Shown here one piece after another: positions 8,951-22,310 of a stretch of DNA of 64,000 nucleotides; positions within the stretch are counted from its first letter, which is position 1; each line of letters begins with the position of its first letter. The DNA lies in the NCBI GenBank assembly GCA_949291515.1, contig CASEVY010000008.1, positions 1 through 64,000 of the forward strand. Reading direction: 5' to 3'. Both the position numbers and the translations under genes were made by a program. Below the pieces are notes generated by a model. That model was not told the origin of the DNA and searched no databases. It worked only from the letters and a program-made list of their open reading frames with translations. The stretch is from an uncultured bacterium (lineage in GTDB: Bacteria > Elusimicrobiota > Elusimicrobia > Elusimicrobiales > Elusimicrobiaceae).

Positions 8951-10241
8951 AATAAAGATTATCGGTGCGGGCATCAGCGGACTGGCCTGCGCCTATTACC
9001 TGAAAAAATACCGTTCCAAAGCCGAAACGGCCATATACGAGGCCGAAGAGAAAATAGGCGGGCTCTGCGGCTCTTACGCGGAAAAAGGCTTCACTTTCGA
9101 TTACAGCGGACATTTGCTGCACCTTTCGACAAGGAACGGCAAAACTTTGGCGCGGAAACTGCTGGGGCAAAACCAAACGCAAATCAAGAGAAACGCTTTC
9201 GTGTTTTTCAAAGATAAGAAGATAGAATTTCCGTTCCAAAACAATCTGTTTCGCCTGGATAAAAATGATATTACTTTTTGCGTAAGCGAGGCGATAAAAG
9301 CCTACGGCGCGAAAGCCGCAGCTAAAAATTCATTCAAGGATTGGGCTTTGGCTTTATACGGCAAAGGAATTTGCGGATATTTTATGTTCCCCTACAACTC
9401 AAAATTGTGGAAGTTCCCGCTTGAAAAGTTAACTTCCCAATGGTGCGGCAAGTTTATCCCAGCTTACACTCTTGAGGATATTATCAAAGGCGCCTACTTA
9501 AAAAGAAACAAAAGAACCGGCTATAACAGTACTTTTTATTATCCAAAGAGCGGCGGCTGCGGCGCGATATGCTCGGCCTTGGCGCAAGGATTGGACAACA
9601 TCAATTTAAATTCCGCCGTAACAGCCATAGATTTTAAAAATAAAACTTTCAAGGCGGGCGGCAAAAACGTAAAATACGACACACTTATAAGCACAATGCC
9701 GCTGCCCGCTTTGGGCAAAGCGCTAAAAGGATTGCCCACCGATATAAAAAAGGCTTTCAAAGAACTTAAACACAACAGCCTTTACGTGCTTAATATAGCT
9801 TTTAAAGGCAAAGCGCCGAAAGGACATTGGTTCTATTTTCCCGAAGACAAATATCCGTTTTACAGGGTGGGCGTACAATCCTCTTTTTCAAAAAACTCCG
9901 CGCCAAAAGGCTGCTTCAGCCTTTATGTGGAATTTTCCCTAAAGCAAAACGGCAAGGCCGATTTGGCGGAACTTAAAAAACAGACTTTATCGCGCTTGAA
10001 AGAGCTTGCCTTCATAAATGATAAGACCGAAATTATAACCGAAAAATGGCACCATATCCGTTACGGCTACCCGATATACGACGGCAAATACGCCAAAGCC
10101 AGGGCTATTATCCTTGATTATCTGGCTAAACAAGATATATACTTACTTGGCAGGTACGGCGCTTGGGAGTATTCGTTTATGGAGAAATCCCTGCTTGACG
10201 CCGCCGCATTAGCCAAAACGATAGCGAAGGTATCAAAATGA
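8940..10241 (+). CDS. FAD-dependent amine-oxidase-like oxidoreductase
   Basis: The 433-residue product has an N-terminal Rossmann dinucleotide site GAGISGLACAYYL (9-21), the acidic residue of EAEEKIGG, and the following GGLCGSY loop typical of the amine oxidase/protoporphyrinogen oxidase superfamily. The His/Phe-rich FDYSGHLLHLS stretch and the PYNSKLWKFPLEKL region resemble the UDP-galactopyranose mutase-like branch found in polysaccharide clusters. The C-terminal motif LGRYGAWEY holds the last FAD-binding turn. The substrate is unknown. Placement after a TagO-like gene suggests a sugar-nucleotide or lipid-carrier-linked role. It overlaps the next gene by ATGA. Confidence 0.85.
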   Translation: MPVKIKIIGAGISGLACAYYLKKYRSKAETAIYEAEEKIGGLCGSYAEKGFTFDYSGHLLHLSTRNGKTLARKLLGQNQTQIKRNAFVFFKDKKIEFPFQNNLFRLDKNDITFCVSEAIKAYGAKAAAKNSFKDWALALYGKGICGYFMFPYNSKLWKFPLEKLTSQWCGKFIPAYTLEDIIKGAYLKRNKRTGYNSTFYYPKSGGCGAICSALAQGLDNINLNSAVTAIDFKNKTFKAGGKNVKYDTLISTMPLPALGKALKGLPTDIKKAFKELKHNSLYVLNIAFKGKAPKGHWFYFPEDKYPFYRVGVQSSFSKNSAPKGCFSLYVEFSLKQNGKADLAELKKQTLSRLKELAFINDKTEIITEKWHHIRYGYPIYDGKYAKARAIILDYLAKQDIYLLGRYGAWEYSFMEKSLLDAAALAKTIAKVSK

Positions 10242-11368
10242 AGATTCTTATATACGGCGGCAGTTTCGACCCCGTCCACAAAGGGCATTACGCGATTTTA
10301 AAGGCGGCCATAAAACAGATACAGCCAGATAAGACGCATATATTTACGGCCTATCAATCGCCGTTCAAGGCGGCGCCGGCACTGCCGTTCAAACTAAGGA
10401 CGAAGATGGCGCGCGAGGCCTTGGGCGGTTTGGACGAGAATATAATTTTCGACGATTTCGAAAATCGGAACGGCCGGGTAACCTATACTTGGGAAACGAT
10501 AAAACGAGTAAAAGAACTCTATCCCGGGGCAAAAATTTATTTGCTTGTCGGGACGGACTGCCTAAACGATTTGCACAACTGGAAGAACAGCGCCTATATT
10601 TTCGACAATGCAATAATAGCCGCGGGCAAGCGCAAAGGCGTACAATTTGACACGAAAAAATTCGATTATATACTTTTGGACGGTACATTCCCGCTGGTTT
10701 CTTCCACACAGATAAGAATAGCCATACTTTGCAACGGCCTTCTGCCCAACAATATATTGCCGCAGACGGCCAAAGCTATAGAGGATCAAAACCTATACGG
10801 CCTAAAGATACACAAATGGCTGCAGGAAAATCTGCGCCCCAACAGATATTTACACGTAAAGATGGTGGCGCAGGGCGCGGTGGAACTTTCAAAAATATAC
10901 GGCGCAAAAGCCGAAGATATGGCGCTGGCGGCGATACTGCACGATTCGGCAAAATGTATGAGCAATCAAGAACTGGCCGATTATGCCGTAAAAAACAGAC
11001 TGAAGGTCGAGGGGCTTAAGGACATTGTCAAATACAGCCCGGCCTTGCTCCACGCAGACGTTTCGGCCGATTTGGCTAAAAAAATATTCAAAATAAGAAA
11101 GGCGGAAGTGCTAAACGCCATAAAATTCCATACTCTGGGCCGCCTTAATATGAGCTTGGAAGAAAAAATACTTTTTATAGCCGATATGTCCAGCAAGGAC
11201 AGAAGATACGCCGAAGCCAGAAAAGTTTATCAGGAAGCGCAAAAATCTTTGGACGAAGGCCTAAAAGAGGCTTTGCGGGTAAAATTGCTTTTTACCATAG
11301 GTACGGACAAATGGCTTGCGGGCGCGGGTATTAAATTATGGAACGAGATTATCTCAAAAAGCAACTGA
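10238..11368 (+). CDS. nadD: Bifunctional NadD-YqeK fusion: nicotinate-mononucleotide adenylyltransferase plus HD hydrolase
   Basis: Of 376 residues, 1-190 form the nucleotidyltransferase with GGSFDPVHKGH (7-17) and the late SSTQIR signature. It makes deamido-NAD from NaMN and ATP. Residues about 200-376 form a YqeK-type HD domain. A conserved H sits in RYLHVKMVAQGA, the H-D pair in AAILHDSAK (near 235), then LLHADVSA and the KFHTLG and IADMSSKDR motifs. YqeK proteins hydrolyse diadenosine tetraphosphate symmetrically. In most genomes nadD and yqeK are adjacent separate genes. Here they are in one frame without interruption. ATGA overlap with the upstream gene and 31-bp overlap with the next. 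Confidence 0.93.
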   Translation: MKILIYGGSFDPVHKGHYAILKAAIKQIQPDKTHIFTAYQSPFKAAPALPFKLRTKMAREALGGLDENIIFDDFENRNGRVTYTWETIKRVKELYPGAKIYLLVGTDCLNDLHNWKNSAYIFDNAIIAAGKRKGVQFDTKKFDYILLDGTFPLVSSTQIRIAILCNGLLPNNILPQTAKAIEDQNLYGLKIHKWLQENLRPNRYLHVKMVAQGAVELSKIYGAKAEDMALAAILHDSAKCMSNQELADYAVKNRLKVEGLKDIVKYSPALLHADVSADLAKKIFKIRKAEVLNAIKFHTLGRLNMSLEEKILFIADMSSKDRRYAEARKVYQEAQKSLDEGLKEALRVKLLFTIGTDKWLAGAGIKLWNEIISKSN

Positions 11369-12243
11369 AGTTAAGGCTCGTAATATACTGCGCCTTCGCC
11401 ATATTGTTATACGGCGCGGCGGCGCAATTCAACACCTCAGCTGGCGGGCTAATAACGAGAAGCGACGAACCTGTCAAAGTACTGCTTTTGTCTTCCCCGC
11501 CGATATTTATAGCATATAACCCCAAATTCAAAAAAGCGGTGGTAAACAATCTGCCCAATACAAAAAAAACGCTAAGCGCGGAGGAAATACTGCGGCAAGC
11601 GAAAATAAATCAAGATAAAGTCATTATCGTAGATATCCGCCCGCAAAAAAGAATAGAATTTTGGGATAAATTTAAAAACAATCTGCAATCCTGGCAGAAG
11701 AAGCCGTATATAATATTCCAATATATTTACGCATACGTTAAGCTGAAATGCAAGGCAAAGACGGATTTGTCTTTTGGGGATTTTGTTCTCATCAGCACTG
11801 AACTTTCGACCTTGCAGCCTTCAGACTTCGCCGTTCAAAATCCTTTGGTCGACAAAATAATAAAAGGCCGCAAACAACAGGAAACGACAATAAACATAAC
11901 TACCGACATCAAGCCCAACCAAACGGCGAAAGGCCCGCTGATAATAGAGGTTTTAAACGCCTCCGGTAAAAACGGTCTGGCCGGTGAAGTTACAAAGTTC
12001 CTAAGAGAAAAAAATAACGGCGGGATATTGAACGTCGACGTAATAAATTATGGCAATTATCCCGAACTGTTGGAAAGAAGCCAAATCTTGGACAACAGTT
12101 CCCGCCTGTTGGACATACAGCAAACGGCCTATCAGTTGGGGCTGGAAAACCACGAAATATTTACACATCGGGACAAAAACTCGATATCCGATGTAAAAAT
12201 AGTGTTGGGAAAAGATTTCGTATTGCCAAAACGATATAAATAA
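11338..12243 (+). CDS. Membrane-anchored LytR C-terminal-domain protein
   Basis: The 301-residue product has one N-terminal membrane helix (LVIYCAFAILLYGAAAQF, about 14-31), a middle region of unknown fold, and a LytR_C-like domain from about 200 to 300 (IIEVLNASGKNGLAGEVTKFL, then NYGNYPE, DNSS and VKIVLGKDF). The catalytic LytR/CpsA/Psr phosphotransferase domain is absent. In other bacteria such LytR_C proteins also lie between nadD/yqeK and rsfS, as here. The role is probably in the envelope and is unproven. The start overlaps the NadD-YqeK end, and no clear ribosome site could be assigned. Confidence 0.8.
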   Translation: MERDYLKKQLKLRLVIYCAFAILLYGAAAQFNTSAGGLITRSDEPVKVLLLSSPPIFIAYNPKFKKAVVNNLPNTKKTLSAEEILRQAKINQDKVIIVDIRPQKRIEFWDKFKNNLQSWQKKPYIIFQYIYAYVKLKCKAKTDLSFGDFVLISTELSTLQPSDFAVQNPLVDKIIKGRKQQETTINITTDIKPNQTAKGPLIIEVLNASGKNGLAGEVTKFLREKNNGGILNVDVINYGNYPELLERSQILDNSSRLLDIQQTAYQLGLENHEIFTHRDKNSISDVKIVLGKDFVLPKRYK

Positions 12244-12290: not shown

Positions 12291-12869
12291 ATGGATAAAA
12301 AACAAGCCAAAGAACTGGTAATAAAAACCGCCCGTTTTATAGACGACAAAAAAGCGGAAGAAGTAAAAGTATACGATTTATGCGGGCTTTCGAGCCTGTG
12401 CGACTATATGATAATAGGTACGGCTACCTCTACGCCGCATCTGGACGCTTTGGATATGGACGCGGGTACAGAACTGAAGAAAGACGGCCTTTACAAAAAC
12501 AACCGCGACGGCGGACAAACCACTACTTGGCGGGTGTCGGACTACGGCGCTTTTATGATGCATATAATGACGAGGGCGGCAAGGGAATTTTACGCGCTTG
12601 ACAAAATCTTCAGCTTCGGCAAGGAAGTAAAATGGCAAAAGCCGAAAAAGACAGCCGAAAAATCCGCAAAGAAAACGGCCAAAAAAAGCGCAAAAAAAGC
12701 CGAAGCCCAAAAAACCGTAAAAACCGCGGCCAAAAAGACGGCTAAGAAAACAGTAAAGAAAGCGGCCGCCAAAACAGTAAAAAAGGCCTCAAAAACGGCT
12801 GTAAAGAAAACTGCAAAAACAGCGGCGAAAAAGGCAGTAAAGAAAACCGCAAAAAAATCCACTAAGTAG
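12291..12869 (+). CDS. rsfS: Ribosomal silencing factor RsfS with a Lys/Ala-rich tail
   Basis: Residues 1-115 are the RsfS/DUF143 domain (CDYMIIGTATST, TTTWRVSDYGAFMMHIMTRAAREFY), which binds ribosomal protein uL14 and blocks subunit joining in nutrient stress. Residues about 116-192 are an added tail made almost only of Lys, Ala and Thr in repeats like KKTAKKSAKKA, as in histone H1 or bacterial H1-like proteins. Family members are normally 105-130 residues. AAGGAAAG lies before the ATG. It stands in the usual nadD-rsfS neighbourhood. The tail may bind rRNA or DNA (inference). Confidence 0.93.
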   Translation: MDKKQAKELVIKTARFIDDKKAEEVKVYDLCGLSSLCDYMIIGTATSTPHLDALDMDAGTELKKDGLYKNNRDGGQTTTWRVSDYGAFMMHIMTRAAREFYALDKIFSFGKEVKWQKPKKTAEKSAKKTAKKSAKKAEAQKTVKTAAKKTAKKTVKKAAAKTVKKASKTAVKKTAKTAAKKAVKKTAKKSTK

Positions 12870-12881
12870 AAGGGAAAGAGA

Positions 12882-14477
12882 ATGCTCAGCAATTTAAGAA
12901 ACAAAATACAAGACAGATTGACGAAAGATCCTTACTTTGCGGAATTTGAAATTTTGCCGCAAGTGGAATTCGCCCCCCCTCCCAGCCATATCGATGCGGA
13001 CATCTCCCTTGTTTGGGCGATGGCCTGCGCCAAACAAATGAAAAAAAACCCTTTGGACATCGCCAAAAAAGCGGTAAAGGTTATTGAGCAACTCGAAGAA
13101 GTGGCGCAGTGCGATTTTTTGGCGCCGGGTTTTATCAATATAAAACTAAGCGACGCTTTCTTGGTGGAAGCCGCACGCGACAGACGCCTTAAAAACAGGG
13201 AAGCGGCAGGAACGCAAAGCAAAGAAAAAATACTTATAGAATTCGTTTCCGCCAATCCTACCGGGCCGCTGCACGTAGCCAGCGGGCGCGGCGCCAGCTT
13301 AGGCGACAGTTTGGTAAAAATACACCGCGCATTGGGCATAGCCTGCGACGCGGAGTATTACATTAACGACGCCGGCAATCAGGCTCAGCTGCTGGGCGAA
13401 TCTTTGAAAGCCAGAGCCCAAGGCAAAGAGCCTCCCGAAAACGGATATCACGGAGAATATCTTATCGACCTTGCAAAACGAATACCCGAAGGCCTGCCCG
13501 AAAGCGAATACGGCCGTTTCGCGATGGAAGAAATAATCAAAACCCAGCAGGAGGATATGAAAGCCTTCGACGTCGAATTTACACGCTGGTTCAGGGAAAG
13601 CGAACTGCATAAAGAGAAAGCCCTCGACAAAATTTTGGATTTGCTAAAAAAACAAAACAAAGTCTACGAAAAAGACGGAGCGGTATGGCTCGGCACCAGC
13701 GCCGACCACGACGATAAAGACCGCGTCTTGGTACGCGCCGACGGCAGACCGACTTATTTCCTGGCGGATATAGCCTACCATAAAAACAAATACGACAGAG
13801 GCTACACAAAACTGATAGACATCTTGGGCGCGGACCATCACGGTTACGTACCCAGAATGGAGGCGGCGGTAAAAGCCTTGGGCAAAGAGCCGCAGTCTTT
13901 TAAGGCGATAATACATCAGCTGGTACACCTTATAGAAAACGGCGAGAAGGTGAAAATGTCCAAAAGGGCCGGGACTTTCATCACTTTAAGGGATTTAACG
14001 CAAGACGTAGGACGCGACGCGTGCAGGTTTTTCTTTGCGGGCAGAACCCCAAACGCGCACCTTAACTTTGATCTGAACATAGCAAAGAAACGTACCAACG
14101 AAAACCCGGTATTTTACGTACAATACGTACACGCGAGAATATGTTCCATATTCAATACAGCCAAAGAAAAGGGCTTTGAACCCCTCGCAATGACCGAGCC
14201 GGAACATATATCCAAGCAGGAAAGAGCTCTGTTAAGCAAAATGCTGTGGTTCAAAAAGACTCTGGAAACCTGCGTAAAAGATTTAAGCCCGCATCATCTT
14301 ACTTCTTATCTTACTGAGCTGGCATCGCTGTTCCACGCATTCTACGACTCCAGCAGAGTAATAGACGAAGCCGACGAAAAAACTTCTCGTTCTCGTCTGT
14401 TTACCTGCCAACTGGTACAGGAACGCATAGCTAAAGGGCTTGAACTTATCGGGGTAAGCGCGCCGAAACATATGTAA
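12882..14477 (+). CDS. argS: Arginyl-tRNA synthetase
   Basis: This 531-residue class I synthetase charges tRNA-Arg. The N-terminal Arg-specific domain runs to about 110, followed by the signature SANPTGPLHVASGRGASLGD, the catalytic core with DAGNQAQLL, a clear KMSKRAGTF motif near 360, and the C-terminal anticodon-binding DALR domain ending with the usual GLELIGV segment. The second His of the HIGH motif is replaced (H-V-A-S). Ribosome site AAGGGAAAG before ATG. The gene starts 12 bp after rsfS and is probably co-transcribed. Confidence 0.96.
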   Translation: MLSNLRNKIQDRLTKDPYFAEFEILPQVEFAPPPSHIDADISLVWAMACAKQMKKNPLDIAKKAVKVIEQLEEVAQCDFLAPGFINIKLSDAFLVEAARDRRLKNREAAGTQSKEKILIEFVSANPTGPLHVASGRGASLGDSLVKIHRALGIACDAEYYINDAGNQAQLLGESLKARAQGKEPPENGYHGEYLIDLAKRIPEGLPESEYGRFAMEEIIKTQQEDMKAFDVEFTRWFRESELHKEKALDKILDLLKKQNKVYEKDGAVWLGTSADHDDKDRVLVRADGRPTYFLADIAYHKNKYDRGYTKLIDILGADHHGYVPRMEAAVKALGKEPQSFKAIIHQLVHLIENGEKVKMSKRAGTFITLRDLTQDVGRDACRFFFAGRTPNAHLNFDLNIAKKRTNENPVFYVQYVHARICSIFNTAKEKGFEPLAMTEPEHISKQERALLSKMLWFKKTLETCVKDLSPHHLTSYLTELASLFHAFYDSSRVIDEADEKTSRSRLFTCQLVQERIAKGLELIGVSAPKHM

Positions 14478-22019: not shown

Positions 22020-22049
22020 ACGAATTTTACATATAGGGAGGAAACTCAC

Positions 22050-22310
22050 ATGAACAAGGAAGATATTATACAGGAACTCTCAAAACACCTTTTTGACAAA
22101 AAACAGGCCAAAGCGGCGGTAGAAAGCACCATAAAAATAATGAAAGACGCCCTAAAAAAAGGCGACAAAGTGGTTTTGTCTAATTTCGGCACTTTTAAAA
22201 CTAAGGAAAGCAAACCTATAAGTTTAAAGAACCCCAAAACGGGCAAAGAAATACCCGTTCCGGCCAAGACGCGCATAAGATTTAAAGCGTCAGAAAATAT
22301 CCTAAAGTAG
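22050..22310 (+). CDS. HU/IHF-family DNA-binding protein
   Basis: The product has 86 residues with the HU pattern: an N-terminal helical dimer part (MNKEDIIQELSKHL...), then VVLSNFGTFKTKE, the arm KNPKTGKEIPVPAKTRIRFKAS and a short C-terminal helix. It bends and compacts DNA as a dimer. A strong ribosome site (GGGAGGAAA) precedes ATG. It lies directly before a MerR-type gene, the common bacterial order of IHF-like and MerR genes. HU versus IHF cannot be settled from sequence alone. Confidence 0.95.
   Translation: MNKEDIIQELSKHLFDKKQAKAAVESTIKIMKDALKKGDKVVLSNFGTFKTKESKPISLKNPKTGKEIPVPAKTRIRFKASENILK

What the first reader, a model, noticed from the sequence alone, without database searches (positions are those of the whole stretch)
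12636..12869. RsfS carries a 77-residue histone H1-like Lys/Ala tail
The RsfS domain ends near residue 115. The remaining residues are almost only Lys, Ala and Thr in KKTAKK-type repeats. Typical RsfS has no such tail. A cationic tail on a factor that binds the large ribosomal subunit could add rRNA contact, or link ribosome silencing to nucleoid or condensation behaviour.
Basis: partly seen in the sequence, partly recalled or inferred. Interest (0 to 1): 0.5.

Follow-up and report, generated by a model that had tools for sequence, protein, structure and literature searches.

The report
Ribosome-silencing factor with lysine-rich tail
In a group of mostly uncultured bacteria, the small protein that keeps idle ribosomes apart carries a long, unstructured, lysine- and alanine-rich tail like that of histone H1, which probably helps it hold on to nucleic acid.

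Summary
Confirmed. RsfS (12291..12869, 192 aa) runs in frame into a 77-residue tail: 32 Lys, 19 Ala, 12 Thr, 2 acidic. Of 100 genomes of genus, family and order (own included; Elusimicrobiales by its nearest named relatives), 96 have RsfS and 95 of those 96 end in a basic tail (21-138 aa, net +8 or more); the exception has in-frame stops. Long Lys-rich tails (>=50 aa, K >=25%): 81 of 96 in the order, 0 of 41 sampled from other orders of the class, 5 of 19 from other classes (all one family), so probably two gains. Composition persists while sequence turns over: K/(K+R) 0.98 and 0.90 in the two families against 0.66 and 0.69 in the domain; KK pairs every 4-5 residues. AlphaFold: RsfS fold plus disordered tail. 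The uL14-contact residues are kept (one E to D). The same genome has Lys/Ala modules on IF-2 and a DksA-like protein and a stand-alone HC2-like protein; HU has none. Most likely an electrostatic anchor on 23S rRNA beside uL14 (inferred); DNA or condensate roles are not excluded. New variant of a known kind.

The parts
12291..12869 (+). rsfS, ribosome silencing factor, 192 aa, stop included
   Evidence: only RsfS match in the genome
12327..12611 (+). RsfS domain (residues 13-107); holds D73, W80, D84, R98, Y101, the counterparts of the uL14-contact or most-conserved residues E70, W77, D81, R95, Y98
   Evidence: mapping read from the ungapped alignment to E. coli RsfS and the residues named
12612..12635 (+). 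junction SFGKEVKW (residues 108-115)
   Evidence: alignment
12636..12866 (+). Lys/Ala/Thr tail, residues 116-192, 77 aa; 32 K and 2 E; predicted disordered
11338..12243 (+). upstream neighbour with a LytR_C domain
10238..11368 (+). upstream neighbour: cytidylyltransferase-like (NadD-type) domain fused to an HD domain
12882..14477 (+). downstream neighbour argS, starting 12 bases after the rsfS stop

Best explanation
A genuine RsfS whose folded domain docks on uL14 of the 50S subunit and blocks joining to the 30S (inferred from family and kept contact residues), with an intrinsically disordered Lys/Ala/Thr tail kept throughout the sampled order Elusimicrobiales (shown). The tail most likely works as a non-specific electrostatic anchor: tethered beside the uL14/bL19/H95 site, it lies on nearby 23S rRNA at the subunit interface, raising affinity or residence time of RsfS on 50S and perhaps screening the rRNA surface that the 30S would meet (inferred). 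Composition, not exact sequence or length, is what is kept (shown).
For: 95 of 96 RsfS in the order have a tail of 21-138 aa (counted from the residue after F107) with net charge +8 or more. K/(K+R) in tails is 0.98 (f1) and 0.90 (f2) against 0.66 and 0.69 in the domains, and 0.88 against 0.69 in the 25 loci with G+C above 0.55. KK pairs recur at 4-5 residues: P(K at i+lag, given K at i) is 0.56 and 0.62 at lags 4 and 5, 0.08 at lag 2. The own tail has no repeated 12-base word, against 2.1 expected from synonymous shuffles, so its repeat is of amino acids, not of DNA. AlphaFold (8 sequences, mean pLDDT 63.8, pTM 0.53): block pLDDT 79-88 in most of the domain (50-69 at residues 61-90), 38-52 in the tail; the model matches M. 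tuberculosis RsfS 4wcw (E 6.6e-07) and 50S-bound RsfS 6sj6 and 9ss4. W80, D84, R98, Y101 and D73 are invariant in 8 aligned sequences; uL14 of the same genome keeps the T-R, R and K of the RsfS contact face. RsfS in S. aureus sits in a cavity of uL14, bL19 and 23S H95, and Y98, near the end of the domain, is at the uL14 contact (passages of PMC7125091 and PMC9503621). Weak: residues 112-185 match the basic end of a protist ribosomal protein eS21 (E 0.0012), a likeness of composition.
Against: No binding data. Lys-rich, Arg-poor composition resembles DNA-binding H1-like tails as much as rRNA-binding tails. The Lys preference cannot be pinned on selection against G+C pressure alone: within the order the domain's K/(K+R) does not fall with G+C either (r -0.03; tail r -0.25, 95 loci). 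Similar modules in the same genome sit on a DksA-like protein and a stand-alone HC2-like protein, whose partners may be DNA or RNA polymerase. Over 84 long tails there is more DNA-level repetition than synonymous shuffles give (381 against 238), and 12 of 84 stand out singly, so replication slippage also shapes them. One relative (G011: L068, also held as L033) is frameshifted inside the tail and still open; G008 has two in-frame stops.
Confidence: 0.45

Rival explanations
1. The tail binds DNA as histone H1 or HC2 tails do, and ties RsfS, or RsfS-bound 50S subunits, to the nucleoid during growth arrest.
For: Composition is Lys over Arg, with KKxAKK and KKxxAKK motifs; Pfam HC2 matches RsfS tails in 31 of 100 genomes at E<=0.001; a stand-alone HC2-like protein (45.9 bits, cut-off 40) is in the same genome.
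Against: HC2 does not match the window's own tail at E<=0.1, and of the 31 matches only 4 pass the curated cut-off while many run on past the stop codon; the folded domain is that of a 50S binder; HU of the genome has no tail, so tails are not a general feature of its nucleoid proteins; IF-2, a ribosome factor, has the module too.
Confidence: 0.2
2. A general polyanion-binding, condensate-forming tail: RsfS, IF-2 and the DksA-like protein gather RNA and stalled ribosomal particles into a starvation body.
For: The same kind of module lies on RsfS, on IF-2 (own, L203, L207) and on a DksA-like protein. AlgP of Pseudomonas has a KPAA-rich H1-like C-terminus needed for even spacing of polyphosphate granules (PMC9239181, abstract and passages).
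Against: Polyphosphate is unlikely as partner: PPK1 (PF02503) was not found in the own genome and in only 4 of 100 genomes of the order (PPK2 not tested). The DksA-like N-terminal module is not constant: of 60 genomes the alignment begins at query residue 50 or below in 13, at 51-100 in 23, above 100 in 20, with no match in 4. No evidence of condensates.
Confidence: 0.15
3. The tail is a tolerated low-complexity extension kept open by chance and slippage, with no function beyond solubility or weak charge effects.
For: Length varies 21-138 aa; DNA-level repetition above expectation in sum and in 12 of 84 tails singly; frameshifted tail in G011.
Against: 95 of 96 keep it, across 16 genera and two families; Lys far outnumbers Arg in the tails, more than in the domains; long tails are also found in a separate class; other frames of the same DNA are mostly closed (frame 1 open in 9 of 84, frame 2 in 0 of 84; frame 0 is open by construction).
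Confidence: 0.15
4. Artefact: frameshift or misassembly joins RsfS to unrelated sequence.
For: A-rich homopolymer runs; one relative frameshifted, another with in-frame stops.
Against: The same junction is found in frame in relatives from other assemblies.
Confidence: 0.02

Closest known systems
RsfS / YbeB / Iojap family (PF02410, TIGR00090)
   Same: Fold, profile scores above cut-off, uL14-contact residues except E70 to D
   Different: E. coli RsfS 105 aa, solved non-mitochondrial chains 105-152 aa; here 192 aa with a 77-aa Lys/Ala tail
HC2 and H1-like bacterial nucleoproteins (PF07382, NF038052, NF038053), AlgP C-terminal domain
   Same: Lys/Ala-rich repeats such as KKxAKK; HC2 matches RsfS tails in 31 of 100 genomes of the order at E<=0.001
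   Different: A tail on a ribosome factor, not a nucleoprotein; HC2 does not match the window's own tail
Lys-rich low-complexity tails of ribosomal proteins (34 of 45 bacterial L21 low-complexity regions exceed 30% Lys, PMC6821194, passage) and the Lys/Ala N-terminus of IF-2
   Same: Basic low-complexity extension on a translation protein, at an end of the chain
   Different: The PMC searches made here showed no report of it on RsfS (listings seen, capped)
Lys/Ala C-termini of some valyl-tRNA synthetases and adenylate kinases (NF011492, NF010381)
   Same: The tail matches the far ends of these models, well below their cut-offs (20.9 of 1783 and 15.5 of 426 bits), which suggests the same kind of tail on other enzymes
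   Different: Unrelated domains; resemblance by composition only

Membership tests
RsfS (PF02410 / TIGR00090) | Profile score above the curated cut-off | tested here: met
   79.3 vs 21.6 bits; 79.5 vs 56.9 bits
RsfS (PF02410 / TIGR00090) | RsfS alpha/beta fold | tested here: met
   AlphaFold model against 4wcw_A, 9ss4, 6sj6: Foldseek E 6.6e-07, 6.0e-06, 3.5e-05, TMt 0.81, 0.83, 0.80; shallow alignment of 8 rows, pLDDT 50-69 at residues 61-90
RsfS (PF02410 / TIGR00090) | uL14-contact or most-conserved residues (E70, W77, D81, R95, Y98 of E. coli / S. aureus) | tested here: met
   W80, D84, R98, Y101 identical, E70 is D73; read by me from the ungapped alignment
RsfS (PF02410 / TIGR00090) | Binds 50S and blocks subunit joining | not testable with these tools
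   -
HC2 / H1-like nucleoprotein (PF07382) | HC2 profile match of the tail | tested here: not met
   No HC2 hit to the window protein at E<=0.1; the only HC2 match in the own genome is a different gene. Tails of 31 of 100 genomes do match at E<=0.001
HC2 / H1-like nucleoprotein (PF07382) | DNA binding and nucleoid location | not testable with these tools
   -
Polyphosphate-associated tail (AlgP-like) | Host makes polyphosphate (PPK1) | tested here: not met
   PF02503 not found in own genome, found in 4 of 100; PPK2 not searched

The most novel reading that the evidence does not exclude
Elusimicrobiales use an interchangeable H1-like Lys/Ala module as a shared address tag on stress and translation factors (RsfS, IF-2, in places a DksA-like protein, plus a free HC2-like protein), which brings silenced 50S subunits, initiation factor and RNA polymerase regulator onto a common polyanion scaffold (nucleoid or RNA body) during growth arrest.
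Probability: 0.12. Interest if true: 0.75.

Novelty: new variant of a known kind. Interest (0 to 1): 0.43.

Why it matters
[quoted passage not shown] coli is little more than its folded domain (105 aa). A clade that keeps a strongly basic disordered tail on it, and a second clade that seems to have gained one separately, offer a natural test of whether electrostatic tethering to rRNA or DNA tunes ribosome hibernation.

Tried and rejected
Frameshift or misassembly: rejected by the relatives. Polyphosphate anchor through PPK1: disfavoured. Simple DNA repeat expansion: Tandem Repeats Finder gives four loose rows of period 12-36 with 67-82% matches and one perfect 11-base row of 1.9 copies, and the own tail has no repeated 12-mer. 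Ribosomal slippage signal: KK codon pairs in tails follow codon use closely, AAA-AAA slightly below expectation (f1 388 against 428; f2 132 against 139), so no sign of a selected slippery site. Tail on HU: none. Tail on HPF: none at the C-terminus of the two relatives read (L211, L213); the own HPF was not read. The tail as a protein query finds no other gene in the own genome at E<=10 (its second row is the same place in another frame; BLAST is weak on low complexity). The DNA pattern KK[TA][AV]KK with one mismatch allowed gave 70 places against 51 for the reversed control, so only its exact hits were followed: 13 places, 5 of them in rsfS; the others include IF-2, DksA-like and HC2-like genes, and three frames without a Lys/Ala tract of this kind (L107, L108, L109). 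Sub-cut-off Pfam and NCBIfam hits to the tail (SLC52, Red1, a type III translocon model) were taken as chance.

Papers: nine searches, listings seen; one search listed 10 of 135 and one search listed 20 of 39. Passages read: PMC12977618 (its 'C-terminal extension' is that of LhpF, not RsfS), PMC9239181, PMC6821194, PMC13246957, PMC7125091, PMC9503621, PMC3400551. No paper was read whole. None of this showed a report of the tail.

Not done: a background of RsfS from other phyla. The search centred on E. coli failed, so the contrast outside the phylum rests on E. coli and solved chains. No tree was built.

Rows dropped: L032-L039 were left out of the counts as likely duplicates of G genomes; all eight carry tails (59-90 aa). 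The 60 loci outside the order were chosen by me to spread over families, not at random: 47 of the 50 genomes (G178, G253, G265 left out; of two hits in G186 one taken) plus 13 of the places listed, whose list was cut by the tool.

Full report
What is there. The window lies in a 1.50-Mb, 13-contig genome whose nearest named relatives are Elusimicrobiales metagenome assemblies (I take the order from those titles). The frame 12291..12869 encodes 192 residues. Residues 13-107 match Pfam RsfS (79.3 bits, cut-off 21.6) and NCBIfam rsfS_iojap_ybeB (79.5 bits, cut-off 56.9). Residues 116-192 (12636..12866) are 32 K, 19 A, 12 T, 5 V, 4 S, 2 Q, 2 E and 1 P. No other stop-to-stop frame of 100 aa or more in the window comes near this composition in a 77-aa stretch: 63 K+A+T against 36 for the next. 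Upstream lie a cytidylyltransferase-HD fusion (NadD-type) and a LytR_C protein, downstream argS.

Is the tail real and kept? In 100 genomes of the genus, family and order (own included), 96 have RsfS. I read all 96 genes. Counting residues after the equivalent of F107 at the domain end (so the 8-residue junction is included; the own count is 85), 95 of 96 carry 21-138 residues with net charge +8 or more, and 81 of 96 carry at least 50 residues with at least 25% Lys. The exception, G008, has in-frame stops in and just after the domain, although the frame beyond still reads as a basic tail up to argS. In G011 (L068, also held as L033) the frame shifts inside the tail; the product stays basic and runs past the usual stop. 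Four of the 100 genomes (G009, G013, G075, G088; 88-92% complete) show no RsfS, possibly through incompleteness.

How far does it reach? RsfS was found in 300 of 340 genomes of the phylum. Of 60 further loci that I chose to spread over families, long Lys-rich tails occur in 0 of 41 from other orders of the class and in 5 of 19 from other classes, all five in family f21, where 6 were sampled. Short or long basic ends (net +8 or more) occur in 10 of 41 and 10 of 19. A short basic end is therefore common in the phylum, and long tails look like two separate expansions (inference; no tree was built). Outside the phylum I have only E. coli RsfS, 105 aa, and the solved chains.

What kind of sequence is kept? 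Lys is preferred over Arg: K/(K+R) is 0.98 in f1 tails and 0.90 in f2 tails against 0.66 and 0.69 in the domains; in the 25 loci with G+C above 0.55 it is 0.88 against 0.69; but within the order the domain's ratio does not fall with G+C either (r -0.03, tail r -0.25), so G+C pressure is not a strong test. KK pairs recur at spacings of 4 and 5. The own tail has no repeated 12-base word (2.1 expected from synonymous shuffles); over 84 tails of 50 aa or more there are 381 repeats against 238 expected, with 12 tails standing out singly. Slippage therefore contributes in some lineages, but protein composition is what persists. In these 84 tails frame 1 is open in 9 and frame 2 in none; frame 0 is open by construction. 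AlphaFold with 8 sequences (mean pLDDT 63.8, pTM 0.53) gives a folded RsfS domain, less sure at residues 61-90, and a tail with block pLDDT 38-52; the model matches M. tuberculosis RsfS and 50S-bound RsfS of S. aureus and of E. coli (rimM-KO pre-50S).

Is it a working RsfS? Reading the ungapped alignment to E. coli RsfS, the residues named in PMC7125091, PMC9503621 and PMC3400551 (passages read) map to D73 (E70), W80 (W77), D84 (D81), R98 (R95) and Y101 (Y98); all five are invariant in the 8 aligned sequences. uL14 of the same genome keeps GTRVFGPVARELREKNFLK, the face with the Thr, Arg, Arg and Lys contacts. The HPF/RaiA family is present in 53 of 60 genomes, own included, in frames of 178 codons or more.

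Who else has such modules? A pattern for KK[TA][AV]KK in the own genome (with one mismatch 70 places against 51 for the reversed control, so I followed exact hits only) led to IF-2 (N-terminus), a DksA-like protein (N-terminus) and a 94-aa protein that passes the Pfam HC2 cut-off (45.9 against 40 bits). HC2 also matches the RsfS tail in 31 of 100 genomes at E<=0.001, 4 of them over the cut-off, many matches running past the stop; IF-2 N-termini in L203 and L207; and small Cys-containing Lys/Ala proteins in five further loci, L202, L204, L205, L206 and L208. In the DksA-like protein the extension varies: over 60 genomes the alignment begins at query residue 50 or below in 13, at 51-100 in 23 and above 100 in 20, with no match in 4. 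HU has no tail. HC2 does not match the window's own tail at E<=0.1, so I call it H1-like in composition and not a member of HC2.

How it probably works. RsfS in S. aureus binds a cavity of uL14, bL19 and 23S H95. The tail begins 15 residues after the uL14-contact tyrosine, so a disordered chain of 77 residues and +30 net charge is tethered at the subunit interface, surrounded by rRNA. The simplest mechanism is an electrostatic anchor that raises affinity or residence time on 50S. Shown: the tail, its keeping, its composition, its predicted disorder and the kept docking residues. Inferred: rRNA as partner and the gain in silencing. DNA tethering and condensate formation are live rivals; polyphosphate is disfavoured because PPK1 was not found in the own genome and in only 4 of 100 (PPK2 not searched).

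Literature. Searches for RsfS or ribosome silencing factor with C-terminal extension, lysine-rich, uL14, intrinsically disordered or histone, for Elusimicrobi* with ribosome silencing, lysine-rich or lysine repeats, and for H1-like tails with ribosome showed no report of this tail (open-licence PMC only, listings seen, capped). Lys-rich low-complexity ends of translation proteins are known in general (PMC6821194, passages).

Verdict. Observation confirmed and widened from one genome to an order. New variant of a known kind; interest moderate.

Noticed in passing
G000:C13:63906-64172 (L118, L200), outside the window: Stand-alone 94-aa Lys/Ala protein with Cys-Ala-Lys-Lys clusters, over the Pfam HC2 cut-off (45.9 bits); similar small Cys-containing proteins in L202, L204, L205, L206, L208.
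   Followed up: partly
G000:C13:16445-17152 (L117, L216), outside the window: DksA-like zinc-finger protein with an N-terminal H1-like Lys/Ala extension of roughly 120 residues; the extension varies among relatives.
   Followed up: partly
G000:C12 about 10804-10965 (L115, L116); L203; L207: IF-2 with a Lys/Ala/Thr-rich N-terminus resembling the RsfS tail.
   Followed up: partly
window 10238-11368: NadD-type cytidylyltransferase domain fused to an HD domain in one 376-aa frame; these are separate genes next to rsfS in some other bacteria (recalled: nadD-yqeK of Bacillus).
   Followed up: partly
L085 (G008): rsfS with two in-frame TAA, one at the conserved uL14-contact Tyr codon, yet an open basic tail beyond; pseudogene, sequencing error or recoding not decided.
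   Followed up: partly
L068 / L033 (G011): Frameshift inside the tail; the product stays basic and overlaps the start of argS.
   Followed up: partly
family f21 loci L151, L187, L189, L190: Another class of the phylum has RsfS tails of 120-175 aa, partly of a different, more helical-looking make-up (L187, L189; by eye).
   Followed up: no
window 22047-22304: HU-family protein of 86 aa without a Lys-rich tail.
   Followed up: yes
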